Part shown: positions 3,535 to 62,378 of the stretch, piece by piece
How positions within the stretch are numbered: position 1 is the stretch's first letter
Layout of the letters: each line of letters opens with the position of its first letter
Origin: Brachycybe producta
Lineage: Eukaryota > Arthropoda > Diplopoda > Playtdesmida > Andrognathidae
DNA: 64,000 nucleotides
Direction of reading: 5' to 3'
Assembly: GCA_036925085.1 (NCBI GenBank)
Contig: JAUPFP010000027.1
Coordinates: 186,001 to 250,000, forward strand
Position numbers and translations under genes: made by a program
Notes under the pieces: generated by a model
Database searches by the model: none
What the model was told of the DNA's origin: nothing
Seen by the model: the letters and a program-made list of their open reading frames with translations, nothing else

Positions 3535-3760
3535 CAGTTTGGCGTTTGATCAATTTACTATTAGATCAGCGCCACCATATGAACAGAAAGGCGTCTGAAT
3601 AAGCTCCAAAGATTGAACAAAACGCCAGAACGAATACCGAATTTGGCGATTATTATACTGTAGGGCATTTGCTTAATCTGTTGCTTATTTTGTTTGGCGT
3701 TTGTTCAATTTGGCGCTTATTCAATTATCACTTGTTCAGTTTGGCAATTTCTCATGAACA
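3535..3760. repeat. Rep-D related block
   Basis: Degenerate copies of TTTGGCGTTTGTTCAATTTG and GCGCTTATTCAATT with an ATTAGATCAGCGCCACC motif at 3569-3585. Confidence 0.65.
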
Positions 3761-4849
3761 CCCATAGGAAGACCTCAATACACCTTCCATTTTGAATAAG
3801 CATAACTTTCAAACCAGACAACTCTATAACAGAAATGAAGACAAAGTTGTCTTGCTACCATACTATAATAACGTTCTGGCATTTGGCCTTTTCCTGGTTT
3901 ACGTGAAAGACATGTTTGAATTTGCATTGTCAACTGGCAACACCAGTTAGCAATTAAGTAAAACAACCAGCAACTAAATTCGTGCCAATTTGTCAATTGG
4001 CTTTTTCAAAAAAAAAAAAAATTCTGTATATTTCTCAAAATGAAGCTTGGTCATCAAAACGTCCATCTTTTTTTATAGTGATAGCGACTAGAAGATACCA
4101 ACTGATAACCCTAACCACTATACTATAGAGATCGCCATCTGATTCCAATCAAATCAAATCTCTTTTGAGCTCTCCAACATCCATATTGCACCTCCTCATG
4201 TCAATTACTCACTGACTTTTTCCCTTCCATTTTCAACCCTCCTCACCAAAAGTGCGCCACCAAAATACAAAATCTTAACTCCCTCCTCCTCCTCCTCCTT
4301 TTTTTTTTGCCAATGCCATTAATGGCGATTGAAATGATTAAAATCTCAGCAGGGATCAAAAAGTTTGGCCAAGAAGATTCAATAAAAACTGCCTTTCAAC
4401 TATAGTAAAAATGTTACTTTTTAGTATTGGCTTTTAAGTTTCAAAAGTTAAAAGGAGGACCAAAAACACAAGTACACTGTTTTGTAATTTAACAACCACG
4501 GACACGGGGTGTGTCAAAAAGTTTAACTGCGATTAACATGTTCTCCTCGGCTACCAAAAAAAAAACAATACCATAAAATGACACGAAATTAGTTTTTTTA
4601 TGACAATTATGAGGACATCATTTTATTCTTGTCTTGAGCTTCAGAATTCTGAAGAGTTGGCCAATGTTGCAAAAAAATACATAAGGCTCATTTAATGTTG
4701 GCCCTAAAATCACTGCCTCAGATGACAGATTCAGTGATTGTTGGGTTCATCGAGCACAGCCCAATAGTGAGACCAATGGCCAAACATTAAGGTTGACTAA
4801 ATCATTAGACCCAACATGTTTACATAATCGCCAATGAAGCGTTTGTATT

Positions 4850-4925
4850 ACGTTTGATTCTTTGTTAGCGCGCTTGCCTGGGTTGGATCTCAGTAATGAC
4901 CATTGTGATTAGATTTTTTTTAAAA
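4850..4925 (+). repeat. Possible tRNA-derived SINE fragment
   Basis: GTTAGCGCGCTTGCCTGGGTTGGATCTCAG compresses an A-box-proximal GGTTAGCGCGCT-like segment and a B-box-like GGTTGGATCTC, as in decayed tRNA-type SINEs (motifs at 4866-4895). The cloverleaf is not complete, so it is not a tRNA gene. Confidence 0.3.
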
Positions 4926-5967
4926 AAACGAACATTTTGATCTACCCTCGCCTTGAAAAACTTTCTTCTTGCATTTTCAATTGAAAAAAAAATATATATA
5001 TTCCAACTTTTTGGTTAACTTGTCATAAAAATCCAAAGTTGAGGACATCCGGAATATTTCACAATGTATCTTAATAAATTGTATACGGCCCACATTTCTT
5101 ATTCACTTGTATAGAATTTAACATATTTGATTTGGTATCTGACCACAAGAAGCCTCTCTCTCACACCAAAATTACAGTCCATGGGTTTCCTATTTTATCC
5201 CACACAACTAAGATGACACACCCATACCCCCAACACTCCACACCCCCCAAAAAAATTCAAAAAAAAAGGGGGGTAATATATGGAGTGGGGTAAGGGGTAT
5301 TTTACTCTTTTAGCAGATAAAATGGAGTAATATAGATTTTTTTGGTTGATATTTTAGTTGAGAAAAATGGAGGGGGGGGGGGGGGGGAGATTTTGTGCAA
5401 TAATAAATCCTGAAAATGATTTGAAAAAATAAAAACTGACCAGTCCACACACTGTTGTCCATTCCACCAACATATATACATTTAAGTAGCCTTTTACAGA
5501 AAAATAGTATAAGCAAAATAAAAAAAATGGCCATGTTGTGTGGATGATTAAAGGTTATGAGAGGAGGAGGAGGAGGGGGGGGGGGGGAAGATATAACAAA
5601 AAATCAGTGGGGGGTTTTCAAATTGTGACCACATACTAAACGAGAGGGGGGTGGGGTCTCTATAGGGCCGATACCCTCCCCCCTTCCTTCAACCTAGACA
5701 TATATATGAAGGAGGAGAACAAAGGGGGAAAAGTGGAAATTGTGGGTAAAATTAGGCAATCGAAAATGGAGAAATAAAAAATCTCTTATCTATAATTTAC
5801 AATTTTATAACAGCATATATTATATTTGATTTTGTCTTCTTCTTTTATTCTTTTTCAACATTTTTTTTGTTGTCATTATGAAAAAAGGTTAAGAAAATAA
5901 ATTCCAAATTCAAGAATATATAGATTTATTATAAAAATTGACATCCAGAATAAAAAAAATACACTAA

Positions 5968-6266
5968 TGCCTTGTACACAACACATGAGTTAAATGAATT
6001 CAAATTAAATGTGTTTAGGTGAATTATACGGAATCCAGTTAAGGACATGAACCGAATAAAAATTGACTTCATTATTAATATTTTAAATTGAAATACTAAA
6101 TCAATAGTTTATATATTATATATTTAAGTATTAACTCAATATTTTCAGATTAATCAACTGAATAAATTGAATTCGATAGATTTGTTTGCTTGCCCTTCAC
6201 GGGGCTCTGTAGAACACGTTTATTGCTTTTAAATGCATTTAAATTATCCGGTGTGTTCTATAGGTA
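5968..6266 (+). mobile_element. Rep-A1, PIF/Harbinger-like MITE
   Basis: About 299 bp, begins TGCCTTGTACAC and ends TATAGGTA, flanked on both sides by TAA (5965-5967 and 6267-6269). The terminal inverted repeat consensus of the family is TACCTNGTACACAC. Internal landmarks shared by all copies: GGAATCCAGTTAAGGACATG and CTCTGTAGAACACGTTTA. No ORF, hence non-autonomous. The class call rests on the 3-bp TWA target duplication. Confidence 0.8.
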
Positions 6267-6509
6267 TAACAGAGAATGTGGTGTTCAATTTCTAAGCTGT
6301 GTTTGAAAAACGGTTCGAATATAGCTTTGTTTCATTTAAAAAAAAATAATCACAAATGTTTTGTATACATCGATAATTATATTTTGTCCTAAATAGCGTC
6401 TCATACATACATAGATGCCAGTCTAGGCATTTTGAAAGCGCTTAGCAACTGAACGCATTCAGTGACAACTGGGTTGTTATGGAATCGTCTCCATATCACA
6501 TGATATCCG

Positions 6510-6960
6510 ACTAAATTAAGCGCCAATTTTACCAAACACTACAAAACTGAATAAGCGCCAAATTCAACAAACGCCATTCAGAAGAATGTTTGCAGTAATT
6601 GCCTACAAACAAGGGGCAAAATGGTAGCGAACACGGGGGTGGCGGAAGCGCTGATTAGACAGGTAATTAGAAATCGGGACGAACTTCAGTTGGCTCCGCC
6701 CTTTTTTTATGACGACCGGCAACTTCTATTGGTTTGTTGTGTGGTTTGACGTTTCAAAAGGGCGGAGCATGTGACGTCAGACTACATAACCAACCAATTA
6801 GAAGTTGTGTTCGTCATAAAAAAGGGCGGAGCCAACTTCAGTTCGTCCCGATTTCTAATTGCCTATGATGATAAGTGCCAAACTGAGCCAAAGTCAAAAT
6901 AAACGCAAAAACTAAATAAGTGCCAAATTGAATGCAAAACTGAACAACTGCTAAAAAAAT
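6510..6960. repeat. Rep-D block split by Rep-B1
   Basis: GAATAAGCGCCAAATTCAAC near 6550 and AATAAGTGCCAAATTGAATG near 6915 flank the Rep-B1 foldback, whose insertion separates them. Confidence 0.6.
6660..6865 (+). mobile_element. Rep-B1, foldback MITE
   Basis: About 206 bp with terminal inverted repeats of about 50 bp (AATTAGAAATCGGGACGAAC at one end, its complement at the other, continuing through GGCTCCGCCCTTTTTTATGA). The inner part contains a second inverted pair around GACGTTTCAAAAGGGCGGAG. Rep-D sequence flanks both sides, so it is inserted in Rep-D. Class uncertain, no ORF. Confidence 0.8.
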
Positions 6961-7201
6961 TATGGCGTTTTTTTATTTATAAATTTTGGCTTTTACCTAA
7001 TTAAATATATTTAGGATTTATATGTAATTAACTGAAGGCACTCAACAAACCATGTTTAATTTGAATTCATTTAGCTCAAGCGTATAGCTAGCTAGCTATA
7101 GCAAGCAGCCAAGCTAATAAGGGGTTTTCTTTTCTTTCAAAAGTGAACATAAGACATAAATATTAATTATTATTCTTATTTTTTCTTATGGTTACGCTTA
7201 C

Positions 7202-7348
7202 CTTTTCGTTTTGATACGCAGTGACCGCAATGAATTCCGTCTCTTTGAAGACGTAAGTACGAAACGTACTGTAGGGTAACTTCAAAATATCATTCGCACG
7301 AACCAAATGGAAGCGAGGTTGATATTTGTGCATTGAGTTTAAAATAGT
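7202..7348 (-). CDS. Tbx2/3: Tbx2/3 exon 3, T-box DNA-binding domain
   Basis: 147 bp, 49 whole codons, residues 222-270. It is too short to appear as a stand-alone ORF and was found by looking for the segment that must follow HGF. It encodes [20 protein letters not shown], then [19 protein letters not shown], then [10 protein letters not shown]. This part of the T-box includes the DNA-contact region around the FIAVTAYQN motif. Acceptor AATTTTTAG at 7349-7350, donor GTAAGC at 7201; both flanking introns are phase 0. The TYVFKETEF and QNEK residues match protostome (insect omb-like) proteins as I recall them, rather than vertebrate TYLFPETEF and QNDK. Confidence 0.97.
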
Positions 7349-7824
7349 CTAAAAATTTCAACATAAAAATCAAATTAAATATTAAAAAAGTCAATTGGTC
7401 ATTTTTTTAGAACATGCAAAACGAATATCTATCAAGCAAAAGTTCATCATCATTCATTCATTTTGTAAAATAAAAACTCAAATCTTAATTAAATCTTGTT
7501 TAATTATTTTATATTAAAATTCATCCAAAAATACCTTTCACCTAACCACCCACTCTCCCTCCTGGGTCCCTCCCTTCCACCCACAAGAGAATAATTTAAT
7601 AATTAAATTATACAAGACGTTACACCTAATAAAGTTGTCTCATTAAAATTAAAAACACCTAATTAAGAAAACCTCATTATTAAAGAGAGAAAGAGAGAGA
7701 GATAATATTTTTCAATTCCCCAAGTTTTATTATCTAATTTCTCAGAATTACTTGCGTCATACTTATGAAGCACGTACAGTCGCCGCACTGTTAACTTAAA
7801 GCTCGTGACGTCAGAAAAGGCTTA

Positions 7825-8134
7825 TACCTATAGTACACACATGATAATTTAAATGCAGTTTAAATAATAACCGTGTACTACAGAGCCCTGTGAAGGGCGA
7901 ATAATCAATATTGTCGAATTCAATTTATTCAGTTAATTAATCTGAAAAGATTGAGATTAATACTTAAATATAATTTATATAAACTTGACAAAATATTGAT
8001 TTAAGTATTTCAATTTTAAAAATATTAATAATTAAAGTAAATTTTTATTTGGTTCATGTCCTTAACTGGATTCCGTATAATTCACCTAAACACATTTAAT
8101 TTGAATTCATTTAACTCATGTGTGAGTACAAGGT
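7825..8134 (-). mobile_element. Rep-A2, PIF/Harbinger-like MITE
   Basis: Reverse-oriented copy of Rep-A, starting TACCTATAGTACACACATGA and ending GAGTACAAGGT, flanked by TTA (7822-7824 and 8135-8137). It has small indels relative to the other copies. Confidence 0.8.
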
Positions 8135-8663
8135 TTAAAATCGCCTCAAACTGTTGAGAACATTTCTGATAACTTATTGTGTTTTTATCAGACAAAATAA
8201 CGAAATTTGAATCAACCTCCTCTGACGTCACAAGCTTCATGTTTTTTAAGTAATTTTTTTTTGTTTGGAACTTTTATTTTGATTGAACATCAATCATAAT
8301 TGAACACGCAATGAATTTGTGTATTTTATAAAAAAAATCTCTTTATTTTCTATAAACCTATTAATATTAAATGGTAAAAATAAACTGTAATAAGATAGCT
8401 AACAGTTTTTTTTTTTTAATATTCACTAATCCTTTTTTTTTACCTGATAAGGTGATACTCCATGTTTAAGACTCAAATTCAAGAGAAAAAAAAATGGCAC
8501 ACTTGAACTTCAACTTGAACCGTCTGAACAGGGATTTCAACATAGAAAAAACCCTGTTAACATGGGGCAAGAGGGGGCACTTGCTCCCTACCCTTTGAGA
8601 AAAAAAATATCTAATTTTTTTACCTACTACTGTTTGGTTTTTTAACCAGTTTCTTCGCACTAA

Positions 8664-8973
8664 TACCTGGTACACACACCTGATAATTTAAATGCATTTA
8701 AATATTAAACACGTTCTACAGAGCCCCGTGAAGGACAAACAAACAATATATGTCGAATTCAATTTATTCAGTTAATAATCTGAAAATATTGAGTTAATAC
8801 TTAAAATATAATTAGATAAACTATTGACAAAATATTGATTTAGTATTTCAATTTAAAATATTAATAATAAAGTCAATTTTTATTTGGTTCATGTCCTTAA
8901 CTGGATTCCGTATAAATCACCTAAACATATTTAATTTGAATTCATTTAACTGCATGACTGTGTGTACAAGGTA
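8664..8973 (-). mobile_element. Rep-A3, PIF/Harbinger-like MITE
   Basis: Reverse-oriented copy with the clearest ends, TACCTGGTACACACACC and GTGTACAAGGTA, flanked by exact TAA duplications (8661-8663, 8974-8976). Confidence 0.85.
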
Positions 8974-12164: not shown

Positions 12165-12234
12165 TATACATGTAACTTATTACCATTTTGTTTAACAAAA
12201 AAAAGGAGGCCTAACAATTTGAACTGGAACACAA

Positions 12235-12396: not shown

Positions 12397-12406
12397 GTAT
12401 GCCAAG

Positions 12407-18441: not shown

Positions 18442-18464
18442 GAGAGAGAGAGAGAGAGAGAGAG
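18442..18464. repeat. (GA)n microsatellite
   Basis: 23 bp of GA in intron 2. Confidence 0.95.
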
Positions 18465-29239: not shown

Positions 29240-29395
29240 GGTGTCAAACTGAATAAGCGCCAAATTAAACAAACACCAAACTGAATAATACCAAGCCGTT
29301 GGCATTTTTATTCAGTTTAGCACTTGTTTAATTTAGCACTTATTTAAACTGGCGTTCGATCACTTTGGCACTAATTCAGTTTACTATATATTGAG
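29240..29395. repeat. Rep-D related block
   Basis: AACTGAATAAGCGCCAAATTAAACAAACACC followed by its mirrored half (TTTAGCACTTGTTTAATTTAGC), giving an inverted arrangement. Quoted units are split at 16 bp in the array. Confidence 0.6.
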
Positions 29396-29624: not shown

Positions 29625-29742
29625 GGAGTTTAGTTCAATTTGGCGCTAGATCAGCGCCACCTGCTCAACACAGAATAGGTACTATTCTGTATAGAGCAAG
29701 TGGCGCTGATCTAGCGCCAAACTGAACTAAACTCCTATATTG
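29625..29742. repeat. Rep-D foldback with paired GGCGCTAGATCAGCGCC palindromes
   Basis: Left arm AGGAGTTTAGTTCAATTTGG then GCGCTAGATCAGCGCCACC, a short centre with AATAGGTACTATTC, and a right arm that is the near-perfect complement (GTGGCGCTGATCTAGCGCC, AACTGAACTAAACTCCTA). Arms are about 40 bp. Confidence 0.75.
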
Positions 29743-29824
29743 CACAAATGCACAAATTAGTCAAAATTTGTTTTGTTACAAACTTTGTAACTTTCCTAAA
29801 ACGTTTATCGTCACTTCGAAATTT

Positions 29825-31735: not shown

Positions 31736-33553
31736 GTTCTTTTTTTTTTTTTTTGAGTAGACTATATATCTTGCTCGTGAACACATATGCTCAACTTTAT
31801 TATTGATTTGGCTTGTTGATATTTAGGCATTTTTTTCTTTTTCTTTTTGTGTGCAAATTACTCAATATGCATATTTAATGTCCGAATTGTTGATTAGACA
31901 AATTGACTAGTGATTTTACAGAATGGCTGATTTTTGCAGTTTGACATTAACATGCAACAGAAGAAGAAGCAGCAGCAGCAAAAAAAAAAAAACGCACATC
32001 GAATTTATACACACACACACACATCATTGTGTTTTATTTTATTTTTTTCTGAGTGCGTTTTCAATAGTTGCGTGCGTTTTTGTCATATGGCCCGTCAATA
32101 TAGGTGTATGCGTGTGTGATATACACTCAAAAAAAAAAGGCTGTTGTGTACAATCGGGGTCAAAAGTGTACACATAAAAATGCTGAGAAAAAAAAAAGGG
32201 GAGAGAGAAAAAGAGAGAACACGTAATCAATCCTCGTCACTATATACGTGCTTTTTGCAGCTGTCTTTTAAAACGACACAATCAATTGTCTATATTTAAT
32301 AAACAGTTTTGGTCCTTACCTTTTTATCAAAAAAGTCCTAATAAAAAAGGACCTCAAATAAGAGTCTATATTAGTCTTCAAACATTTTTAAGCTGGTGCC
32401 AATAGATGGCATTTTATTCAAACCTCATGACGATCCCCGTACTTTCTTTTATTTATTAATATAGGATTAAATGGACCTTAATTCTATATATATAAGAATA
32501 GGACTTATTGTTCAAAATTAAATGCATCTTTTAGGACCTTTTCTTCACGTTATACATTTGTCATATAGACCCGAATGGTTTCATAAAATGAACGAGTTTT
32601 TTTTACCTCATGAGAAAATTTTTTTAAATATTTATTTGAAACAATAAAAAGAGTAAAACCTAAAGTTGCATTGTTATTTTTTCAAGATCTGATACATTTT
32701 AAAATATACTTTTTTCAACGACATATTTATAAAATTATTTTCTTTGATTCATTACATAAAAAGCCGTAAAAATTACGACATTTTCAAAACAATATATAGT
32801 TTAAAAAGTTTATTTTGAAAGATAAAATCATAAAAATTGTTGATGCAGCAACATCTTTTCTAAACTATTCTAGTTTTTATAGATAAATCTTGAAATTCTT
32901 TTATAAGTTGCTTCGATAAGGACCTGCATGGTTAGCTCTTGATATATTTATTGGAAGGTCTATTTATAGTCCTTTTTATAAAATGAACCATTTCACCTGC
33001 AATTAATAAAAGACCAATAGAGACCTAGAAAACAGCGAAAACCTTTTAACACGAAAATATATTTTCAATCCGTATAGAATTAGCGCAACGCTTAAAAACA
33101 GTCTTTTCTTTACGAAATTCGTTTAACACGAAATAATATTCCGATTCCGATTCTTGTTAAAACGATTACCAACTATTTTAGAAGAATTACACTTTCAGGT
33201 GTCCTAAGAGTGTGTCCTATTTGGGCCTCATAATAAAAAATAAATGCTGCCCCCTAATACACCTTTTTATGTCATCATCATCATTTCCTGTACCTTATCC
33301 CGCAAGCAGCAGGGTCGGCCTTGCTGGTTCTAACTCTCCACTCGTTCCGATTTTGCACCAAGCCCCCAGTGACCCCACATGCCACCATATCCCGTTTTAC
33401 TACCATATCCCGTTTTAATACACCTTTTTATGTAGAAAATTTAAAAAAAAAATTGACTGAAAGTGCCTCAAAAGATATATTCTCACCTGAAACAAACGAA
33501 AAACCGCGAGATTGCAAACAAAAAACCAAACCAAAAACAAAAAAACGTCTTAC

Positions 33554-33948
33554 CTTCCAGATTTAGTGATGACCATTTCAGTTCCAAGTACATGAAACTT
33601 TTCCCAAAGATCTTTCGATTCGAGAGTGACTTTAGGATCATCAACAACACCATCGTCTTCCGGTTGAAGTGACCGAAGAGGCCTTAAATGTGACTGATGA
33701 GCCAAAACATCTTCGGCCGTCGTATAAGGATGACCAAGAGGTTGTGGTAATTTAGGTAATAAAGAAGCCGGATAAGAACCAGCAGCTGCCGCCGCCGCAG
33801 CAGCTGCAGCGGCATGAGGATTCAAAGTAAGCCCAGGAAAATACTGAGGTGGCGTCAGAATAGAGTTCATACTGAAATCTGTTGGACGCTGGAGAAGAAA
33901 CGGATGGTAAGCCATCTCCGGTCCGCTTTCTGACTGTTCGAATCTCAT
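33554..33948 (-). CDS. Tbx2/3: Tbx2/3 (optomotor-blind-like) exon 1, N-terminus and start of T-box
   Basis: First coding exon of a T-box transcription factor, a nuclear sequence-specific DNA-binding protein whose Tbx2/3 relatives are mostly repressors in patterning. It encodes residues 1-131 plus two bases of Arg132. Visible features: the subfamily N-terminal motif [16 protein letters not shown] at residue 12, an 11-Ala run (residues 46-56, coded by mixed GCN codons), an acidic stretch (EDD, VVDD), then the T-box from about residue 103 ([28 protein letters not shown]). The start MRFEQ at 33948 is chosen because vertebrate TBX2/3 also carry about ten residues before MAYHPF. The second ATG (33915) sits in a much stronger Kozak context (G at -3 and +4) and may be used too. 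The frame stays open upstream to 34119, but that stretch is low-complexity Phe/Lys and is taken as leader. Donor GTAAGA at 33553; intron phase 2. Confidence 0.95.
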
Positions 33949-35140
33949 GGAGAGAGAGAACAAGGGGGGAGAGCACAATATCACGCAAAAATCAAAAAAT
34001 AATAATAATTTAAACACACAAAAAGAAAAATGATTTTTTTTTTTCTTCAAATTTTTAACAAAGAATTTTTTTTTTCTTAATAAAAAATTGCAACAAAAAA
34101 AAAAACTAAAAAAACTCACGCGTGTTATAAGTTTAAATTTTTTTTTTAAAAAAAAGATATTAATAATAAACGATCAGCGCTTTTTTTTCTATTATTTGTC
34201 AAAAACCGCAATTTTCTCGCATAAAAACGCAAATCTTATAAAATGTTTTTTTTTTTTCTCACGCAAAACAAAAAAAGGTCAACCACAACAACAGTTCCGA
34301 CAACAACAACAAAAAAAGAGTTCCGTATAAAATATGTAATATCTCACGATGAGTCAGTCCACCACGGCCAAATGGACATACATAAAAGCAGTGGTCCGAT
34401 TCAAACAATTTTTAATTTTTTTTTTGCGTGTCCACACAACAAGAAAACAAGGAAGACCTGCAGATTGATGTTAATTTATAAAGATGAACGGTTTTGACAC
34501 AACAAAAACATCATCACGAAAAAGATGATGGCAAAACGGCAACATTTGACGCGAAAATAAAAAAAGAGTTCATCTTTTTTTAACGGTGAACGATGATGAT
34601 GATGATGATGATTTAAGTTCCCGAACTTCATGCATGCACGCATGCCGCGTTCATAACGCTTAAAAGCCGCCTTCAAAACACTCACACGAACGTACCCGCA
34701 CAAACCGTGAAATGAAATATATATAATGTCCGAAATTTTAACTTGACCAAACACACATTAAAAACGACAAATTACATTTTTTTGTTGTTATTTTTGAATC
34801 AAAATTTAAAAAAAAAAAAAATTCTCACGCTTTATAAAGTTGCAGTTCCTGAAATCCTTCTTTTTATAGAATTTTAAAAAATAAAAGATTTTTTTTAAAA
34901 AAAAAATCTCTATATTTATATTTTGTGGTCAAAAATATTCTTCAAAAAGGTCCTCTTCTTCTCTCCTTTACGAAGGGTTTTTCTTTTTTTCCTTCTTTCC
35001 CCTTTTTCCTATTATAATATGCACGTCCATATAGTATTACATAGCCATTGTATGGTTATATACGTAGGTCTATGTATATGTATTACATGTATATTGTATA
35101 TACATATATATACGTGTATAGATAGATATATATAGAAAAA
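33949..35140 (-). promoter_or_regulatory. Probable 5' leader / proximal upstream region of Tbx2/3
   Basis: Sequence just upstream of the Tbx2/3 start. Immediately before the ATG there is a short GA/TC tract (33950-33960). The rest is AT-rich with many T/A runs and a (GAT)n tract at 34593-34613. The open frame through 34119 encodes only Phe/Lys-rich low complexity and is read here as untranslated leader. No splice acceptor for an upstream non-coding exon can be fixed by eye. Confidence 0.4.
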
Positions 35141-39556: not shown

Positions 39557-41540
39557 ATAATTAGTAAATCTCCAGCTATAAATACAGAAATGATATAAAT
39601 ATTTAACAATATATAAAAAATGTTAGGACTATTGATCTTTTTCACTATTTCATGTTTGAATGAAATAAATTTTAAAAATTTCAATCATTGAATTCAAAAT
39701 AGTTCTCACATCCAACATATAGTATAAATGAGAAGGACCAATGCTCAAATTGGACACAAAGTGGACCCCAATTTAGAAACAAGCCGTATATACAAGCCGT
39801 ATATAGAAGCCAAGAGGAATAAGTGATAAAAGTAATATTTTAAGTAAATTGAGTTCAAAGTTAAGATACCTCCATTCATTTCAATGTTATATATTTCTAC
39901 ATTTTCATACAGCAGCAATGAGCAGCTTTTTCATTAATTTCTTTTGTCCACCAAATTCTTTATCATTTCATTGACCAAATTATGGTAGGACTACTTATCT
40001 CCCATTTTTATACATAAAAAAAATGTCACTTATCCCCCTTGACTACTAATTCAATCCTATAGATATAGAGAGAGAGAGATAGAGAGAAAGTTGATTCCTT
40101 GCATCTTTAGAAATATGTATGACGCATGCGCAAGGGTATATGCCGGATTGCATGATGCGTGTTTCCAAGCAGTTATTCCCTGCATTCAATATCCTCCATT
40201 TTATCATTTGGGATTTTCTCTTCTTTTTCTATATAGAGATAGATAAATAGATAGAAAACTCTCCCTCTGAAACACATACAGAGATTGAAAAATATATAAA
40301 ATGAACAGAATGAAAGAGAGACATAAGGGGAAGAGGAGGAGGACACCGGGGGGGGGGGGGGGGGGTGGAGAAAATAAAAACCGCCATTTTGATTAGTTTT
40401 TCGTGCAAATTGAAGCGTGGATTCGTAACGCCTTACCGTTCATACTAAATATCAATTGGGGTGGAGCACAAGACTTTTAACTTTTTTTTTCTTCTTCTAA
40501 TATGTATTTCAAATATTCCTATAAATAGGTTTGAGAAAACCTATTAATGAGAAAACGAATTTCCCTCCCTTTTTTTTTTTGTTTTTTTTTTCTCCAATTC
40601 ATATTATAACGAACTACTACTTTCATTTTTAAGACCCAAATCAAATTTGTGAAACATTCCTAATATATATATATATAAAAAATCCCTTATTACACTGTCA
40701 AAAAAATAATAATGAGATTTTGTTTTTATTATATGTTTGTCTGGTTTTGACAAATCATTTTTGCATGTAATTTTACCTCTTATAATTGAGAATATTGTAC
40801 CTCTGTCACAGGCCTTCATGCATTGGCTGTTTGTATATAATAGGTTTAATTTATGCAATTAAGAGTCTATCAGATTTCTTATTAAATTTTTTATTCAAAT
40901 CAAAGAGACCATATATATTGATAGACACGTCTTGTTTATTGTTGAGGCACGCACACACGCACACAAAATAGCATAATATAATGTGTATAGCAAGTAGTAT
41001 AAAATATAATCAAACAAAACAAGTAAAAAAAAGGAGTGACATTTGTAACACGCAAAAAAAAAATGAATGTTACACAAAACAAATTAATACGATTTAAAAA
41101 AAAAGTTTCAATCGTAAATAAAACAAAACAAGAAGAAATCTGTTCCATATCGAATTTGGATATTTTATCATAGTTTTTCTATAATGTATAGGCGGCCTAA
41201 TGTAGGAATTGACTCACGCGAAATTTTTCACTTTGTTCTCATTTCATTCGATTGACACGTGTAAAAAAACCCCACTGTTTCTATATGTATTTCTATTATA
41301 TGCACGAGAATAATTAATTACTTTCTTTGTTTTCTTCATTTTCATATCTATATATGCAAATATATAACAGGGATGCTTTGTTAACTTGTAAAACACCATT
41401 AAAGTGAATTTTAAACGAGATTAACTTGCAAAAAGCAGTTAATGATGCGTTTATATAGTCGGTATTTTATGACGACATCTTCTATAAGGTTTACATTCAA
41501 TTTGAAGAATTTAATTTCTAATCAGATGTATAGAGGGTGT

Positions 41541-41815
41541 GTGGCGCTGATTTAGCGCCAAATTAAACAAACATCAAACTGAATTTGGAATAAGCGCCAA
41601 ATGGAACAAATGCCTAATAAAGGAGAACACTAAAGAGACAGTGGCGCTGATCAAGCGCCAAATTGAATAAGCGCCAAATTGAACAAACGCCAAACTGAAT
41701 AAAAGCCAAATGGAACAAACGCCAAACTGAATAAGCGCCAAATGGAACAAACGCCAAACTGAATAAGCGCCAAATGGAACAAGCGCCAAACTGAATAACT
41801 GCCAAAATGTGATAA
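41541..41815. repeat. Rep-D minisatellite array (16/32-bp units)
   Basis: Tandem half-units of 16 bp alternating GCCAAACTGAATAAGC and GCCAAATGGAACAAAC, bounded by GTGGCGCTGATTTAGCGCC and GTGGCGCTGATCAAGCGCC. Because a 32-bp unit shifts frame each turn and has no stops on the minus strand, it creates long spurious ORFs with WRLF/FGAYS repeats. Not coding. Confidence 0.85.
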
Positions 41816-41822
41816 ACACATT

Positions 41823-41877
41823 GTTAGGTTAGGTTAGGTTTGGTTAAGTTAGGTTAGGATTGGTTAGGTTAGGTTAG
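41823..41877 (+). repeat. Degenerate interstitial (TTAGG)n tract
   Basis: About eleven pentamers, mostly TTAGG with TTTGG, TTAAG and GATTGG variants. (TTAGG)n is the usual arthropod telomere repeat. It lies directly after the Rep-D array. Confidence 0.7.
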
Positions 41878-41892
41878 CTTATGGTAATATAA

Positions 41893-44200
41893 CATTTTTA
41901 CATTTTTTATATATTTCAAAATAAACTTTATAAAATTGTCTGCTTAAACCATAAAAAGCTTATTTTAAAAGATATCAAACAACATTTGAGTGATTGAGCT
42001 ACCATTCTATAGTTTCTAAAAACGCTTTCAATTTTTTCTTAATTTTGTTTAAAGTGGCATTTAAACTTTAAAATCACCTTATACCTAATACACACTTGAT
42101 AATTTAAATGCATTTCAATAATAAGCGTGTTCTACAGAGCCCTGTGAAGGACAAACAAACAATATGTCGAATTCAATTTATTCAGTTTTTAATCTGAAAA
42201 TACTGAGATTAATACTTAAATATAAATATATAAACTATTGACAAAATATTGATTTAAGTATTTCAATTTAAAATATTAATAAATTAAAGTCAATTTTTAT
42301 TTGGTGTTCATGTCCTTAACTGGATTCCGTATAATTCACCTAAACACGTTTAATTTGAATTCATTTAACTCATGTGTGCACAAGGTGATACACTTGAATT
42401 AATTTCTTTTAATAAATTAATATCATCAGTAATAATAATATTCAAAATAAAACAAAAGGTGCAAATTTAACGTTCGGTTACTTACCCAGCATGCATGCAT
42501 GTCTGCCCAAATCATGGAGTTTCAGTCTCACCCGCGATACCGAATTATATGAGTGACCATCATCATCATTATTACCACTGTTGTTCATGTCAATGCAGCA
42601 CATAACAAATAAGGTGACAAGAATTTCCGGGCAATAAAACAAAATAAACAAAACAAGAAAGAAACCAATAATTGAAAAAGCTAATTAATTAATGAGGAGA
42701 AACTTAATATAAAATTGTAAATCATAAACAATCAAAATCATTCGTGCATCACACATAAGGAATGAAATTGCAAAAAGTAAAAAAAAAAATTGGGTGTAAA
42801 AACATAGAAAAGACAACCAAAAAATTAAAAAGTAGAAAGAAGAGAAGAAGAAGATAGAAAGAGAATGAATAAATATCTCTGATGAAAAAAAAAACATTTT
42901 CAAATAAGCTTGCCCCCCCTTTTTATATATATATTAGATATATATATATATCATGATATGATATCAACATGTGCATATATATATAATATAAATCAGAACA
43001 AAACATTGATTTTTTAAGTCCGTTAGATGGCGGGGAATCCAAATCATAAAACAGTTGTAGCGGTCGGTGGTTCCGGGAACAAAATGGGGATAGATCTATA
43101 TCCCCCCCCCCCCTCCTCCTTTTCCCCTATATATCATATCATTATTACAATATGGAACTGATCCATCACAGTATATACATATCTTGAATTACACATTATT
43201 CAGAAAGACAACAACAAACATTTCTTTACACTATTTTTATATGTATTTTATTATTGCATCATATATTCTCCCTCTAAATCTCATTGCGATTTATAAGCAA
43301 AATTCGTCCTAGAAGCAAATTTAATATGAAGTTCTACAAATATGTGGGGGTACATCTTAGAAATTAGAATATTCAACGAAATTCTTAAAGGTATATATAT
43401 TTGCATATCTATTCTATCTTTTTAAAATAAGCTTTTCATGTAAGGTTTAAACAAAAATGACACAATTTTAAGCAGACGACATTTTTTTAAAAAAATTTTT
43501 TATCCGTAAAACATTTATTTTGAAAAGATATCAACATGAAAATACTCTTACGATAGCTTTATAAATATGTATTTTGTTTTTGTCCTCCTAGATGGCGCGC
43601 TTGCGTGGCTATTATGTTCTATAGAGAGATCTATTCCACCACACATGGTTTTGAAAAAAATGCTCTAACGTTTTTCAGGAGAAATGTTTTATAAGAAACT
43701 AGAATAGTTCGGGGATAATATTAAAAATAAATTTTACAACAGTTTGAAAAAGGCGAAAATAGTTTTTCATGAAATTTCAATGGAAAATCCCAAAAACGGG
43801 TCATTTTCAAACTGAACTATAAATAAAATGTTTATTTTTTTAAGTTATTGCATGAAAAAACTTTTAAGATAATATTTTACCATTCTAGTTTTTAAAACAA
43901 TATGAATTTTTTTCGTAATGTTTTTTCAAAAAAAAAAAACGTTCGTTTGACATTTTTGCGTACAAATTTTACAAAATAAAAAACGTCTATGAAGCATAAA
44001 CATAATTAGCCGTAAGGAGGGGACAAAAAGCAAAATGAATATCTAGATCTATCTATAAAGCCACCTTAAATGATAGAGTTTTACCCTTCTAGTTTTCTAA
44101 AACACTTCTTTTTAGTTTTCAATTAATTTTGTTCTTCCGAAAAGACAAAAAGAAGAATCAAGAATTCGAAAATCAGCTTATTCATAATTTCATAAAACCA
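41893..44200. mobile_element. Rep-E copies at 41893-42081, 43355-43570, 43680-43930 and 44085-44200
   Basis: Four partial copies recognised by AAAAGCTTATTTTAAAAGAT, TTTCAAACAACATTTG-type centres and (C)TTCTAGTTTCTAAAAC ends. Between them lie Rep-A5 (42082-42387), unique sequence and an AGATGGCGCGC motif at 43590. Confidence 0.55.
42082..42387 (-). mobile_element. Rep-A5, PIF/Harbinger-like MITE
   Basis: Reverse-oriented copy with TACCTAATACACACTTGA at one end and GTGCACAAGGTG at the other. TTA precedes it; the right duplication is degraded. It directly abuts a Rep-E copy. Confidence 0.8.
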
Positions 44201-45284: not shown

Positions 45285-45790
45285 AAGGCGCCAAACTGAG
45301 TAAATGTTAAAAAGTATATCGGTTATTCAGTTTGGCGTTCGTTCAATTTGGCTCTTATTTAGGTGAATCTACTACCTTGTACGTACACATGAGTTAAATG
45401 AATTCAAATTAAATGTGTTTAGGTGAATTATACGGAATCCAGTTAAGGACATGAACACCAAATAAAAATTCACTTTATATTAATATTTTAAATTCAATAT
45501 TTTAATGCCAATAGTTTATATATTTATATTTAAGTATTAACTCAATATTTTCAGATTATTAACTGAATAAATTGAATTCGACGACATATTGTTTGTTTGC
45601 CCTTTACAGGGCTCTGTAGAACACGTTTATTATTTAAATACATTTAAATTATCAGGTGTGTAATAGGTATAAATGTAATGGTTTGGCAGTTATTTAGTTT
45701 GGCGTATGTTCCAATGGTGGCGCTAATTCAAATTGGCGTTTATCTCATTCTATAATTTAGTGCTAGATCAGCGCCACCTTTTAATCAGTG
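45285..45790. repeat. Rep-D block split by Rep-A6
   Basis: AAGGCGCCAAACTGAGTAAA on the left and TTTAGTTTGGCGTATGTTCC, then CTAGATCAGCGCCACC on the right of Rep-A6 (45373-45669). Confidence 0.65.
45373..45669 (+). mobile_element. Rep-A6, PIF/Harbinger-like MITE inside Rep-D
   Basis: Forward copy, TACCTTGTACGTACACATGA to GTAATAGGTA, with TAC before and TAA after (one mutated base in the duplication). Rep-D minisatellite sequence lies on both sides, so Rep-A landed in Rep-D. Confidence 0.8.
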
Positions 45791-50609: not shown

Positions 50610-50880
50610 TTGACAAACGCCAAACTGAATTAACAGCTAACTTTTTGGCATTTGTTCAATTTGGAGCATACATTTATTCAGTTTGGAGTTTGTTAAATTG
50701 GAGCTTATTCAGTTGGCAGTTATTCAGTTTGGAGCTTATTCAGTTGGCAGTTATTCAGTTTGGAGCTTATTCAGTTGGCAGTTATTCAGTTTTTTTAGCT
50801 TATCTAAAGTTTGGCACTTAATAAATGTGTCACTTGTTTGCTTTGGAGCTTTTTCAGTTTGGTGCTTATTCAATGCCACC
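50610..50880. repeat. Rep-D variant, 31-bp tandem units
   Basis: At least three near-identical 31-bp units combining GGCAGTTATTCAGTTTGG and AGCTTATTCAGTT (about 50700-50800), with degenerate units on both sides. Confidence 0.75.
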
Positions 50881-56018: not shown

Positions 56019-56185
56019 CAGTTGAGCGTCCGCTATCGGAATAATTTTTTTTTAATAAATTTTCTTTGCAGTCAGTTATTTCTTACGTTTCTCCACATTT
56101 TTAATGGGAGTTCGATTATATGAACTTTTGATTATCGGAACTATATGCATGTCCGACATTATTTCCGATAATCGACGTTCTACTG
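56019..56185 (-). mobile_element. Rep-F2, pogo/Tigger-like MITE
   Basis: 167 bp, CAGTTGAGCGTCCGCTATCGG to CGACGTTCTACTG, flanked by TA. It shares ATGGGAGTTCGATTATATGA with the 11909 copy in inverted orientation and is internally shorter. Confidence 0.8.
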
Positions 56186-58004
56186 TATAAACACAACACA
56201 CAATTAATAAAATAACTGATGCAATCATAAGAAGCAACAACAGAAAATGTAAAATCATTACGATTTGGGCCTTTTTGGTCCAAAAATGTATCTTTTTATT
56301 GAAGAAATAAATTTAAGTGAAATTTTATACAAGTTTCTAAAGATTATGAAATTTGTGTATTTGATGCATTTATATTTTGAATAAAAAACCTTTTTTATAT
56401 TAAAGGGTTAGAACCGTCGTTATGTGTTTTGTGCATTTTAAGCCAACCTTTAGTCTTTCTGAAAAGGTATAGAAAACAACTCTTCCATTCCTATTGTGGT
56501 TCATGGGGACAATACAGAAAAACAAAAGCATAATTTGTATATTTTTCATTACAATTGAAATCGCAAGGTAAATTTGCCAAGCATTTGTTTAGACCTAACC
56601 TATGGTAATATTCACACACATGTTTATCCATCATAATGAGTATTAATGACAATTAATGAGCATATCATACAGTATATATGTTTCATTTGGTATAAATATT
56701 TTCATAACAATTAAGAAAGAAAAACCTTCAATAGAAATTGTACCATTTTTTAACAATAATAATTATCATTAATATACAAATTAATGAATTATTGTGTTCA
56801 ACCCATTAAAATCAATCCTTTAGAAGTTGTATAAGTCTTGGCAATTTTATATCATCAGTAAAAAAAAGGTTAATTAAGGTGATGACAAATTAATGTTAAT
56901 AATTAACTTGGTGGTGACAAGTGAAACACCTTCAAGAGAGGTATTTCTGATAAGACTCTAGACAGTGGAAACCGTTTAATACGAAATAGGAGGGACTGGA
57001 GGGACTTTCGTTTTAAACGAATTTCGCATTAAAATAAAAAAAATGTATGCTATTTTAATGAACTAGACTTCATGTTATCCGATTTTGTTTGTTATTCGTT
57101 TTCGTACGAATACAAATTTCAATAAAAGAAATTCTAAATAATTATATTTATAATTGTATTGTGTATTTTTAAGTATTCGAATTACAATTATTTTCGTTTT
57201 TTGTTGTTGTTACCTTGGTTTTGAAATTGCAACTAAAAGAGTGCATAAATTGCACTTTTGAAATTTATATTATACGAAATAAAAAAAAAACCAGTACATT
57301 TTTTTGATAAATATAATTCTGAACATATATAGGCCTAAATATATATTTATAATTGTTTTAAAAATAAATATTGATTCGATTGTTGTAGTCGTGTCTGTCG
57401 TTGTAATTTTCTTTTGACAAATACAAATCCATGGATGTTTGGTATTTCCCGGGTTTCACTTTTCGATTATTATCAATTGAAGATCATCAGAACACCAGCA
57501 CCACTCTCCAAAAAAAAAAAAAAGAAAATGGTTTCCCCGTGAATGGTAGGCCAACAAAAACTCAATCTTTTCAACCATCAGGAGGAGACGAGTTATAACC
57601 ATTGAAAATATCAATTTTTTTTTATTTCGATTCAGATAGAATATAAGTTACACAATGAAATGAATTCAATAATAATAACATAATACGTGTACATTTTATA
57701 TTTATACATAGGTTCCATTCCAATTAAGATAACCACGGTCCACTGCATAATGGAGGCAGGTTCTCCCCATTTGGTTTTAGGTCCTGTTTGAAAACGTCTT
57801 TTGTATAGATCTATATATATACGTAACAACAAAAAAGCCCAACAAACAGGCATCACATTGAGATCTAAGGGCTAATGTGAACTTGGAGGGGCCCTTAACA
57901 AGTTACACAAAATAAATTCAACAACAAATTTGAAATTGTGATCATTGATCAATACAAGTGGAAACCGTACAACATGGACTGGAAAGGACCAAAATATTTT
58001 TTTT

Positions 58005-58090
58005 CGTGTTAAAAGGAAGAATTTTCGGGTTATTCTAAGAGATTCTCTTAGAATAACCCAAAAATCCTTCCTTTAAACACGAAAAAAAAT
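58005..58090. repeat. Long near-perfect hairpin inside a GTGGAAACCGT repeat
   Basis: TTTCGTGTTAAAAGGAAGAA then TTTTCGGGTTATTCTAAGAG pairs with CTCTTAGAATAACCCAAAAA and TCCTTCCTTTAAACACGAAA; arms of about 40 bp with few mismatches and almost no loop. The surrounding repeat starts near 57957 and has a relative at 56965-57040. Confidence 0.75.
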
Positions 58091-59243
58091 ATTTAAAAAA
58101 TATTTAAAAAAATATTTCCATCGAATATTATCCGATTTTTTTTAAAGACAAAAATTAAAAAAAATATCTTCTACTTGAAGTTGGTGCATTTTCAAACGTA
58201 CATAAAAAAGCTTATTTTGAAAGATCAACATGAAAGTATAGCTTTAAGTGATCTTCTAGTTTCTAAGACACTTTCTAGTTTCTCTTCATTTTGCACCTGA
58301 AAGTCAAAATAATCAAGAGTTTAAGAGGCGTTTAAATTTTAAAACCACTTTAAGTGGTTTTCACTCTATGAAGATACATTTTTCTGCAAAAAAAATCGTA
58401 TAATATTGGCAAAGGACCTAAAAAAAATTTGTGCCCAAATAGATCTATATTAAAAAAATTTTTTCAACAAATGGACCATTTTTTTAAAAAAAATCCATTT
58501 TAAACCATGATATGTTCACCAAAAATAGCAATGGTCAAACTGAATTCTTGAAGTAAAATAGGTGACGATTTTGTTGAATAATATAGATCTCTATATACCT
58601 ATAGTGACCATTTTGCCTTATCTCAATTTGGTCCTTATGACCTAAAATAAAAAATACACACACACGAATCTCCCTATAATAAAGGACCGACCACAAAATG
58701 GCATCTGTTATGATTCAAAAATCTCACTTCCAAGTTTTCACAAAATGTAAATAAAAACAAAAATCACGAATTAGAAAAATCTGCTAACGAAATTTATAAA
58801 AAAAAATGTTCAAGTTATATATTAATAATTAATAAGAAACTAAAATGAAAAATAAGTTTATCACAAGATAAGAGATAAATGTAATTATGTGAATGACCAC
58901 ACAAACACAATTTAAACCTTACATTTAGGCCTATTTCAAATTTTTGAGATAATGTACATTATCTTTTAAGTGTCTTTATTTTCTCTTAGTTAATGGAATT
59001 CAGACTAATGGGCTTAGATTTTTTTTTTGATTATTTTTGTTTAGAATCCATAAGAAGAAAAAAATTTATTCAACAGATTCCATATAAATAATATGGACAA
59101 CCATTGATGTGATTTTAGAAAATTGGAATAAATTACAGGGTTTGTGCAAACAACAATGTATAGATTATTATTATTATTATTATTATTATTGTACAAGAAA
59201 GAATAAACATTGGATCTTATTTATATAATGGCTCACGGCATCC

Positions 59244-59330
59244 AATTTGGACCTCCCAGTCTTTATACATTTAATAGAAATATAATTTGGACTTCCCAGT
59301 CTTTATATATTTAATATAGAAATATAATTA
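59244..59330. repeat. Two-copy tandem duplication
   Basis: AATTTGGACCTCCCAGTCTT plus TATACATTTAATAGAAATAT occurs twice in tandem with a ~42-bp period and few changes. Confidence 0.75.
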
Positions 59331-59589
59331 AATTAAAACATTGATTTTTGTTCTTTATTTTAAAGAAATGATTTTTTCTACGTTTTTATTTTTCTGTTCA
59401 ATTTTGTAATAATTAACATGTTATTTTCTTAACCTTTAAATAAAATATGAATTTAAAATTTTGAATAATTAATGAGAATTCTTATTATTTTTTCGTATAT
59501 ACAATATTATTTTAAGGATTTGTTTATATTAGTTTTTATAAATTTATAAGTTTGTTTTTCATCACTGTATGTAAATTGAACTTACCGCC

Positions 59590-59710
59590 ATATTTATAAT
59601 AATATTAATAATAATTATAAAAATAATAATAATAATAATAATAAAAATAGTAATAGTAATAATAGTAATAATAATAATAGTAACAATAATAAAAATAATA
59701 ATAATGACAT
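59590..59710. repeat. Imperfect (AAT)n tract
   Basis: About 120 bp of AAT with AGT and AAC interruptions. Confidence 0.9.
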
Positions 59711-59816
59711 AGATTAATTTCAAAAGTTGACTAAAATGAAATAAAATTATAGAAAAGAATCACATTAAATGTTATATATTAAATTAGATATTTGACATAA
59801 TTTTTTCTTCATAATA

Positions 59817-60003
59817 CAGTCGTACCTCGTTTAACGATGAAGATGCATTCTAGAAAAAATTGTATCGTTAACTGGATCGTCGTTAACCGAATCATTATTG
59901 AAATAAAGGCACATGTAAAGGCGCTTTTCTGTACAAAACAACAGAAAGTGCGAGATATTGGTCAACTATACGATATACCGAGGTATCGTTATGCGAGGTA
60001 TGA
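59817..60003 (+). mobile_element. Tc1/mariner-like MITE remnant
   Basis: Begins CAGTCGTACCTCGTTTAACG after a TA, with an ATACCGAGGTATCGTTATGC motif near 59975 that is a degenerate inverted match. The TIR start resembles the CAGTNGTACCTCG ends of pogo/mariner-type elements. The right boundary is not exact. Confidence 0.5.
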
Positions 60004-60354
60004 ATATATTTAAATGCTTTTTACTCATTTCATATTGAATTTTTTTAATGTCTTTTGTTGAAAATGAACCAACAATAAAGGAATTTGCTAATAACATTTA
60101 AATCACCTGTGACAATCAGCTAAAATTAATGAAGTATAAAAACAATGAAGAAGAACCACAATTAATAAAAATTATATTAAAATAAATACAATAATTAATT
60201 TTCTTTATAACATTTTAAAATGTGTTTTATCATATTTTCATTTTCTCGTTCTTGTTTCTTAAAATAACAACAATATGCAAAATTTTCAGATAAATTAATA
60301 ATACCATAATTAAGAAAAGAAAAAATGATTCAAATGAAAAATAAATATAAGGTT

Positions 60355-60715
60355 ATTTTAAGGTCTTTCTGTGGTAACAGAATGAAGAGAAACTAGAAAA
60401 AGTGTTTTAAGAAACTAGAAGGGTAGTTGAAAATCACTTAAAAGTTATACTTTTATGTTGATTATCTTTCAAAATAAGCTTTTTATGTCACTTTATAAGA
60501 CAACATTTTTTAAAAAAAAAATACCATCTCCTTAAAAGTCATAAAAGTTAAATTCAAACATGACATAAAAAGTTTATTTTGAAAGATAACACCATGAAAA
60601 TACCTCTTATACGTTGATTAAACTACATTTTCTAGTTTTTAAAACACAATTCAAACCTGAAAGACAGAATAATCAAGAATTTAAGATGCCTTTACAATTT
60701 AAAAAACTACCTTAA
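60355..60715. mobile_element. Rep-E15, nearly complete
   Basis: AGTGTTTTAAGAAACTAGAAG, TTGATTATCTTTCAAAATAA, AAAAAGTTTATTTTGAAAGA, TTTCTAGTTTTTAAAACACA, GACAGAATAATCAAGAATTT in the expected palindromic order. 14410-14640, 15618-15885, 32640-32900, 58195-58350 and 62462-62890 hold further, more decayed copies. Confidence 0.65.
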
Positions 60716-61944
60716 CACAAATAATATATATTAAAATAAAATATTCTTACTTGAAATACATTTTTTTTTGTTCACTTCATCCAATTTCATTTATAAAATT
60801 TGGTTCAATACAAAAAAAAAATAATAACTAAAAAGCCTGCAAATGATGATGAAGATGATGATGATGGGACCCAAATGCGAGTATTGTGTCGCGGTCAACA
60901 TCCAAAGTGACCATTTGACCACTCACTGCCCCAATCTCCGAGACGACGATGATGATGATGATGATGATAATTCGGATGAACAAGCTGGCTGCATTTGGAC
61001 TTGAAAATGAAGCAAAGAAGAAACAAGACGACGACGACGACCAAAAAGCGGCGGTAAGAAGAGGGATTTAATGCCGAAAATACCCTTCTTTCTTTCTTAA
61101 AGTCTCTCTCATTTGATATTATTATAAAACTACCCATATATCCACAACAAGATAAAGAGTAAGTATATTTATATAGATAGATATATATAATAATAATATA
61201 AGGGAGGAGAAAAATCCCACATTTAAAAAATAAAAAAGACAACGACTAAAAAGGACAATTTGAATGACGCCCGCCCGGTAGGAAGGCGGAACCAACTCCG
61301 TCATCAACCCCTTTTGTCTCTTATTTCTTTTTTTTTAAATAAGGTAGATAAATTACTACTACTACTACTACTACCAACTACTACTTACTACTACTATCAT
61401 CATTCAACTGATGAGATGGAAATAAAAATGAACTTATATATTATATTATAATATACACAAGTGATAAACTTGGAAAAAGAGACTTCTAGTCTCTATCTCT
61501 CTCCGCCTTTAGATTATAACATAGGCCATTTAAAATGATAAGTTTTGCATTTAAATGTCTCTCTAACGGCCCCCCCCCCTCCCCTTTCTTTTTTAGGCAA
61601 CTCCTTCTGTGTGTAATGAAGACAGAAATAATGACTTTTATCTAACAAACTTAAGTGGATCATCATTTTCATTCAAGTTTTTATATATTTTCTTCTTCAA
61701 AAAAAAAGCTACACCGACTTTTTTTTTTAAAAAAAAAGAAGCCACACAATTTAATAGCTCATATTTATAGAGACTATTTATAATAAAAACATACAATTTA
61801 TATAATTATTTTTTTTAAAAAAAAGACCACCCAGTTTTACTTATGTGGGTGTCTTTTCATTATAAAATCATACATAATTTTTTTTCCCCCATTATTTTAG
61901 GTATATTATGTATTTGGGGGGTTGGGGGTTTCTTTGCTCATCAT

Positions 61945-62250
61945 TAGGGCTCGGATTTAGATGCAATATCAACCGGAATGTTTCTCAATTTGTGGCCCAA
62001 GAGCCAACTGTGAAGTAATCATCATTAGAGCAACTGCAATTATGTTATTTCTAATCAGAAAAGCTGGGTAGAGAGGCTAGATGTCTGGTTACTATCAGTT
62101 GTCAACTAGAGTTCTAGCCTCTAACCATTTTTTTTTAATTAGAAAGAACAATTTTTTTTATATCTAAACGAGATTGTTACTTTACAATTGGCACTTGAGC
62201 CACATATTGAGAAACATTCCGGTTGATACTGCATCAAAATCCGAGCCCTA
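61945..62250 (+). mobile_element. Rep-C4, hAT-like MITE with 8-bp target duplication
   Basis: 306 bp, TAGGGCTCGGATTTAGATGC to CAAAATCCGAGCCCTA, flanked by exact CTCATCAT (61937-61944, 62251-62258). Same layout as the 23766 element. A Rep-D fragment begins immediately after it. Confidence 0.9.
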
Positions 62251-62261
62251 CTCATCATTTA

Positions 62262-62378
62262 AAGAGAGGTTGGAGCTAAATAAGCTCCAAATTGAACAAA
62301 CGCCAAGCTGTGTAAAAAGTCAAAAATGTGGCGCTTATTCAGTTTGGCGTTTGTTCAGTTTATAGCTCTTATTTAGTC
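62262..62378. repeat. Rep-D related block
   Basis: AAATAAGCTCCAAATTGAAC on one side and GTGGCGCTTATTCAGTTTGG on the other, arranged as an inverted pair, adjoining the Rep-C element. Confidence 0.6.

What the first reader, a model, noticed from the sequence alone, without database searches (positions are those of the whole stretch)
3535..62378. Rep-D: a dispersed, structured minisatellite with a recurring GGCGCTGATCTAGCGCC palindrome
At least eight blocks (3535, 6510, 29240, 29625, 41541, 45285, 50610, 62262) share 16-bp half-units that alternate GAATAAGC and GAACAAAC, sometimes as inverted arms. A near-palindrome with a GATC centre and GCGCCACC end caps several blocks. This resembles no transposon class I can name and is being spread somehow; the 16-bp periodicity and palindromic caps might be termini of a mobile unit or protein-binding arrays.
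Basis: partly seen in the sequence, partly recalled or inferred. Interest (0 to 1): 0.7.

Follow-up and report, generated by a model that had tools for sequence, protein, structure and literature searches.

The report
Foldback jumping-gene family with tandem-repeat arms
The scattered repeat blocks are copies and relics of a small, non-coding "foldback" DNA transposon: many better-preserved copies still sit between duplicated 8-base target sites, so the family spread by ordinary insertion, and about half of those copies carry stretches of telomere-like repeat inside.

Summary
The blocks are copies and relics of a non-autonomous foldback-type DNA transposon. Well-preserved copies read GGTGGCGCTGATCAAGCGCC – tandem 16-bp units – short palindromic centre – inverted units – TTCAGTCGCCCC. 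Of 51 copies with both ends, 35 have a perfect 8-bp target-site duplication and 40 match at 7 or more of 8 bases, against 2 of 2550 for flanks paired across copies. The genome holds 1112 left-end and 953 right-end matches at up to 3 mismatches, reversed control 0. In the window, an element at 2944-3576 has a 9-bp direct repeat on both sides; the 62262 block keeps 8 of 9. No coding copy was seen, and the genome-wide transposase searches did not complete. The anatomy is closest to Mutator-like Phantom/Muta1 elements; Merlin is not excluded. 24 of 51 copies carry a GGTTAG-rich array with a fixed module; a long TTAGG array near one contig end suggests this is the host's telomere repeat.

The parts
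2944..3576 (-). Old copy in reverse orientation: right end GAGGCGACTGAATAAGCGCC at 2945, degenerate left end ..TAGATCAGCGCCACC ending 3576
   Evidence: Direct repeat ATATGAACA at 2935-2943 and 3577-3585, 9 of 9 (found by eye, no significance computed)
3586..3753 (.). Second degenerate foldback copy next to it (units at 3696-3727)
   Evidence: Lies between ATATGAACA (3577-3585) and ATGAACAC (3754-3761), so the target word occurs three times, the third partly
6513..6576 (+). Fragment of 16-bp unit array
   Evidence: Units at 6544-6575 with 0 and 1 mismatch
6636..6960 (+). Degenerate copy whose left cap (GGTGGCG..GCTGAT) is interrupted by an unrelated inverted-repeat element (about 6655-6870); limits approximate
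   Evidence: Read by eye; unit hit at 6909
29240..29387 (.). Old foldback copy, unit hits in order + + - -; limits approximate
   Evidence: right-end-like match at 29240-29261 with 4 errors
29625..29745 (.). Two left ends (GATCTAGC variant) back to back, bodies pointing away, 43 bp between the palindromes
   Evidence: Exact matches at 29642-29658 (-) and 29702-29718 (+)
41540..41639 (+). Left-end fragment (GATTTAGC variant) directly in front of the next copy
41640..41881 (+). Copy with left end, units and GTTAG-rich array but no right end: truncated
   Evidence: Left end with 1 mismatch at 41640-41659; array 41823-41881; no strict right end in L039
45285..45372 (.). Degenerate foldback relic; limits approximate
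   Evidence: Unit hits at 45318-45349
45684..45778 (-). Relic with left end ..TAGATCAGCGCCACC
   Evidence: Unit hits 45685-45734; 3-mismatch left end at 45759-45778
50610..50880 (-). Relic with expanded 31-bp double units; the end at 50861-50880 is too degraded to say which end it is
   Evidence: Period 31, 3.1 copies, 100% matches at 50698-50792; matches left end with 5 errors and right end with 4
62268..62386 (+). Compact foldback copy
   Evidence: Flanks TTAAAGAGA (62259-62267) and TTAAAGGGA (62387-62395), 8 of 9 bases; right end with 4 mismatches at 62364-62383; left end read by eye, not found

Best explanation
The blocks are copies of one non-autonomous foldback-type TIR DNA transposon family (the confidence given is for this), most likely of the Mutator superfamily, Phantom/Muta1-like (about 0.6). 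Shown: fixed ends (GGTGGCG...CGCCCC), an array of alternating 16-bp units leading into a short palindromic centre, the same units inverted at the right end, and an 8-bp target-site duplication. Inferred: a transposase made elsewhere binds the repeated units and the palindromic left end, cuts the element out and inserts it with little site preference. Unit number then changes by slippage or unequal exchange, giving lengths in 16/32-bp steps and occasional satellite-like expansions. The blocks in this window are mostly old, degraded or truncated copies.
For: 8-bp target-site duplication perfect in 35 of 51 copies and at least 7 of 8 bases in 40 of 51; control 2 of 2550 (first set 26 and 31 of 38, control 1 of 1406). 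Nine-base matches occur in at most 1 copy at any offset. 1112 left and 953 right ends genome-wide, reversed controls 0. Of 85 left ends entered (of 100 listed, of 1112), 52 pair with an exact right end, 47 of these at 126 to 925 bp. Of 15 lone right ends fetched (of 27), 11 had a left end with 1 to 4 mismatches 232 to 696 bp away; 8 of these have a perfect duplication directly at the end and 1 a base away. A 224-bp copy folds at -68.1 kcal/mol against a mean of -27.0 for shuffles, z -12.3. The palindromic centre is present in 34 of 41 rows. Termini of 32 copies differ from their majority sequence by 2.9% and 3.1%, but these copies were chosen for similar ends. [quoted passage not shown]
Against: No transposase was found: all 20 requests for the Merlin and MULE Pfam families in this genome did not complete, so the superfamily rests on anatomy alone. 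The palindrome sits at one end and the two ends differ. 11 of 51 copies lack a good duplication. Most window blocks are too degraded to show both ends.
Confidence: 0.93

Rival explanations
1. The same foldback transposon, but mobilised by a Merlin (IS1595/IS1016-like) transposase rather than a Mutator one.
For: Merlin elements have terminal 5'-GG-3', TIRs of 24-462 bp and 8- or 9-bp duplications; one Merlin family has very unequal TIRs, and copies of another carry 163-bp and 12-bp tandem repeats (PMC8101967, passages). Both ends here begin GG and the duplication is 8 bp.
Against: The passages read describe no palindromic end motif and no arms built of short tandem units for Merlin, whereas Muta1 and Tm1 have such arms. 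The Merlin family search did not complete (13 tries).
Confidence: 0.22
2. A plain dispersed minisatellite spread by recombination or replication slippage, without transposition.
For: Arrays of 16/32-bp units of variable length; local satellite-like growth, such as an open frame of 437 aa through an 18-bp unit in L014 and a 33-bp unit array in L006.
Against: Fixed ends and target-site duplications in 40 of 51 copies against 2 of 2550 in controls.
Confidence: 0.02
3. A Helitron/Helentron: the palindrome would be its terminal hairpin.
For: A GC-rich hairpin close to one end.
Against: Helitrons make no target-site duplication (recalled); here 35 of 51 copies have a perfect 8-bp one. The other end is an inverted repeat of the same units.
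Confidence: 0.01
4. Host regulatory or chromatin protein-binding arrays maintained for the host.
For: Regular 16-bp spacing and alternation.
Against: Copies are dispersed and flanked by insertion duplications; window copies are decaying.
Confidence: 0.02

Closest known systems
Muta1 and Muta5, MULEs of Aedes aegypti (PMC5225508, passages and section 7; grouped with Phantom in PMC6446971, passages)
   Same: 8-9-bp duplications; TIR made of a short terminal motif (palindromic in Muta1) plus short subterminal tandem repeats (12 bp with 3-4-bp spacers in Muta1, 15 bp in Muta5); many non-autonomous derivatives with variable repeat number and foreign internal sequence
   Different: No transposase linked here; the palindrome is longer and at one end only; left array long, right arm short; GTTAG-rich internal array
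Tm1 Mutator/Foldback family of Meloidogyne (PMC3169594, passages)
   Same: Composite TIRs of variable length made of tandem units of about 14 bp, unequal 7-bp terminal motifs at the two ends, MITE-like forms
   Different: 9-bp duplication, other motif sequences, transposase-bearing copies known
Tetris (Drosophila virilis foldback, PMC4079207, passages) and Galileo (P superfamily, PMC3688188, passages)
   Same: Foldback TIRs with internal tandem repeats; for Tetris also 8-10-bp duplications, no coding copy found, and seeding of satellite arrays
   Different: Longer TIRs, other sequences; Galileo belongs to the P superfamily
Merlin superfamily (PMC8101967, passages)
   Same: GG termini, 8-9-bp duplications
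   Different: Arms of short tandem units and palindromic end motif not described in the passages read; no transposase shown here

Membership tests
Foldback-type TIR DNA transposons | Inverted arms made largely of tandem repeats, able to fold back | tested here: met
   Units + then - with a palindromic centre in 34 of 41 rows; z -12.3 for one 224-bp copy
Foldback-type TIR DNA transposons | Target-site duplication of constant length | tested here: met
   8 bp: 35 of 51 perfect, 40 of 51 at least 7 of 8; control 2 of 2550
Mutator superfamily (Phantom/Muta1-like) | 8-11-bp target-site duplication | tested here: met
   8 bp; MULE range from PMC6446971
Mutator superfamily (Phantom/Muta1-like) | Palindromic terminal motif plus subterminal tandem repeats in both TIRs (as in Muta1) | tested here: inconclusive
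   Met at the left end (hairpin -8.8 kcal/mol, 3 of 200 shuffles as good) with 16-bp units; the right end has the units but no comparable palindrome (-4.8, 24 of 200)
Mutator superfamily (Phantom/Muta1-like) | MULE transposase in a copy with the same ends | tested here: inconclusive
   Seven requests for PF10551 in this genome unanswered; no coding copy recognised among the elements read
Merlin superfamily | Terminal 5'-GG-3' and 8-9-bp duplication | tested here: met
   Ends GGTGGCG and GGGGCGA, 8 bp; Merlin features from PMC8101967
Merlin superfamily | IS1595-type transposase | tested here: inconclusive
   Thirteen requests for PF12762 unanswered
Helitron/Helentron | No target-site duplication (recalled) | tested here: not met
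   8-bp duplications

The most novel reading that the evidence does not exclude
The family spreads telomere-like DNA. 24 of 51 copies hold at least two GGTTAG words together with a fixed module of about 100 bp, and in all 25 copies with a telomere-like word it points the same way relative to the element ends. The host telomere repeat is probably TTAGG. A foldback transposon that took up host telomere repeat and now disperses interstitial telomere-like arrays could affect telomere-protein titration, fragile sites or chromosome healing.
Probability: 0.2. Interest if true: 0.55.

Novelty: new member of a known kind. Interest (0 to 1): 0.33.

Why it matters
It turns a puzzling dispersed minisatellite into a defined transposon family with exact ends, insertion scars and a testable source of movement. 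It also adds a non-autonomous family, in what looks like an arthropod genome, with the tandem-unit arms seen in Muta1 and Tm1. The telomere-like internal array is an unusual cargo that could link foldback transposons to interstitial telomeric sequence.

Tried and rejected
Minisatellite without transposition, Helitron and host-binding arrays were considered and rejected or ranked low for the reasons given under the rivals. Coding copies were sought in two ways. First, two long simple left-right pairs (1463 and 1540 bp; three longer spans were left out as bridging neighbouring copies) were fetched: L069 is a chain of repeated left ends and L070 carries a 1-kb insert of another inverted-repeat element; no coding frame was recognised by eye. 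Second, 15 of 27 right ends without a left-end partner in the lists were fetched with 2.0-2.6 kb inward; 11 proved to be ordinary short copies and 4 (L078, L080, L082, L087) had no left end. A Pfam scan of 10 of 27 open frames (75 aa or more) listed from seven loci gave no transposase; one match (PF23780, E 0.021) is far below its cut-off. Other open frames were looked at by eye only. Rfam found nothing at gathering thresholds in the window. A 20-base left-end pattern has no exact match in the viral contigs. Target-site preference: no clear motif in 32 sites, and the sites are about 34% GC, much like the window. Literature searches on TU elements and on Merlin MITEs returned no paper. The sea-urchin TU elements were recalled as a possible parallel and are not used as evidence.
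Full report
Check of the observation. The window lies in an unnamed eukaryotic genome of 295 Mb (G000:C27:186001-250000). Scanning for the 16-bp units AAACTGAATAAGCGCC, AAATTGAACAAACGCC and AAATGGAACAAACGCC at up to 3 mismatches gave 40 hits in 12 clusters, against 0 to 6 in each of ten dinucleotide shuffles. All eight reported blocks carry unit or palindrome hits. Outside them are a cluster at 45685-45734 and single hits at 2949, 6909 and 55188; all but the last, which looks like chance, belong to elements. The quoted palindrome has five matches at up to 3 mismatches and 32 exact matches genome-wide with none for the reversed control.

Boundaries. The palindrome searched with its neighbours (GTGGCGCTGATCTAGCGCCAAA, up to 3 mismatches) has 1112 places in the genome and 0 reversed-control places. 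Reading such loci showed a second fixed end, TTTGGCGCTTATTCAGTCGCCCC, which has 953 places and 0 control places at up to 3 mismatches.

Target-site duplications. The 8 bases before GGTGGCG and the 8 bases after CGCCCC are identical in 26 of 38 copies and at least 7 of 8 in 31 of 38; pairing left and right flanks of different copies gives 1 of 1406. With more loci the figures are 35 and 40 of 51, control 2 of 2550 (L069 was left out there, and the set includes an internal left end of a copy that has two). Nine-base matches occur in at most 1 copy at any offset, so the length is 8. This shows insertion at these ends by an integrase or transposase.

Anatomy. The 51 spans measure 192 to 854 bp, plus one odd span of 101 bp and one of 1542 bp with a foreign insert. 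Many lengths step by 16 or 32 (192, 224, 256, 288, 320, 416). From the left: end motif, units in + orientation (350 of 430 neighbouring pairs alternate in type), a short palindromic centre (found in 34 of 41 rows), then inverted units (three to five in 37 of 41 rows) and the right end. One 224-bp copy folds far better than shuffles (z -12.3). 25 of 51 carry a fixed module of about 100 bp (TATAAAAGCTCACAATATTTGGACCATCAG...), and 24 of these also have at least two GGTTAG words. In all 25 copies with a GGTTAGG or CCTAACC word it is in the same orientation. A pure 70-base TTAGG pattern has 7366 overlapping places (442 on one strand, 6924 on the other); the 100 listed form one continuous array that begins at base 5001 of contig C1 and points as a telomere would, with nothing listed in the first 5000 bases.

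Age and variants. The outer 52 and 58 bases of 32 copies differ from their majority sequence by 2.9% and 3.1%. These copies were found with end patterns allowing few mismatches, so this is a lower bound on the family's spread of ages; it shows that a young group exists. GATCTAGC copies are more degraded; L005, L006, L007, L015 and L016 share short internal stretches, and three places elsewhere match the internal part of L005 at 72-76%. Chains of left ends (L062, L069, window 41540 and 41640) recall plant MULEs with tandem TIRs (PMC3310237, passages). One of three arbitrarily chosen 9-kb stretches (L093) also holds a small old copy, whose flanks GTCCAAT and GTCCAAC look like a decayed duplication; the other two had no unit hit.

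The window copies. The element at 2944-3576 has the 9-bp repeat ATATGAACA on both sides, one base longer than the family's 8; next to it lies a second degenerate copy ending at a partial third ATGAACA. The element at 62268-62386 has TTAAAGAGA/TTAAAGGGA. These were found by eye. The other blocks are truncated or too diverged for a confident duplication. Among ten of 30 window open frames of 90 aa or more that were scanned, the only family hit is the start of an optomotor-blind/T-box gene at 33550-34173 on the minus strand, which with the TTAGG repeat suggests an arthropod; the species was not identified.

Mechanism. Shown: insertion with 8-bp duplication, fixed ends, foldback arms; no coding sequence recognised in the copies read. 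Inferred: cut-and-paste in trans by a DDE transposase; units as binding sites, as shown for sites in Galileo's tandem repeats with its THAP domain (PMC3688188, passages); growth and shrinkage of arrays by slippage or unequal exchange. No clear target preference was seen (32 sites).

Comparison. The nearest described anatomy is Muta1 of Aedes aegypti: 8- or 9-bp duplications and 145-bp TIRs made of a 10-bp imperfect palindrome and nine 12-bp repeats with 3-4-bp spacers (PMC5225508, passages and section 7), which PMC6446971 groups with Phantom (passages). Tm1 (PMC3169594, passages) and Tetris (PMC4079207, passages) are further parallels. Merlin shares GG ends and 8-9-bp duplications (PMC8101967, passages). 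The deciding test, a search for a transposase with these ends, was requested 20 times for two families (PF12762, PF10551) and never answered. I therefore file it as a foldback TIR transposon with confidence, as Mutator-like at about 0.6, and as Merlin at about 0.2.

Novelty. The kind is known. I did not see this family in the listings and passages of the searches made, but those searches were by topic words and repeat databases were not available, so "undescribed" is not claimed.

Noticed in passing
window 6655-6870; also L028 after its left end: Another inverted-repeat element (arms CAGGTAATTAGAAATCGGGACGAACTTCAGTTGGCTCCGCCC...) inserted in or beside left ends of this family in two places.
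   Followed up: no
window about 41950-42030; L003, L005, L008, L023: A further dispersed repeat (TTAGAAACTAGAATGGTAGCTCAATCACTTAAG..., with inverted arms) lies near several copies (by eye).
   Followed up: no
window about 42082-42300 and L021: A 224-bp stretch 91% identical between the window and L021, downstream of a copy of this family in both.
   Followed up: no
L070 about 425-1440 on its minus strand: A 1-kb insert with ends CCCAGGTAGCA / TGCTACCTGGG inside a copy of this family; no Pfam hit in one open frame scanned.
   Followed up: partly
L014 from about 1780 on; L006 to about 1430: Satellite-like expansions next to left ends: an 18-bp unit (AACAATGGCCAAATTTAT) running through a 437-aa open frame, and a 33-bp unit array.
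   Followed up: no
window 33550-34173 (-): Open frame with optomotor-blind N-terminal region and the start of a T-box: first exon of a bifid/Tbx2-like gene.
   Followed up: partly
G000:C1 from 5001: Long pure TTAGG array close to the left end of a 22-Mb contig, pointing as a telomere would.
   Followed up: partly
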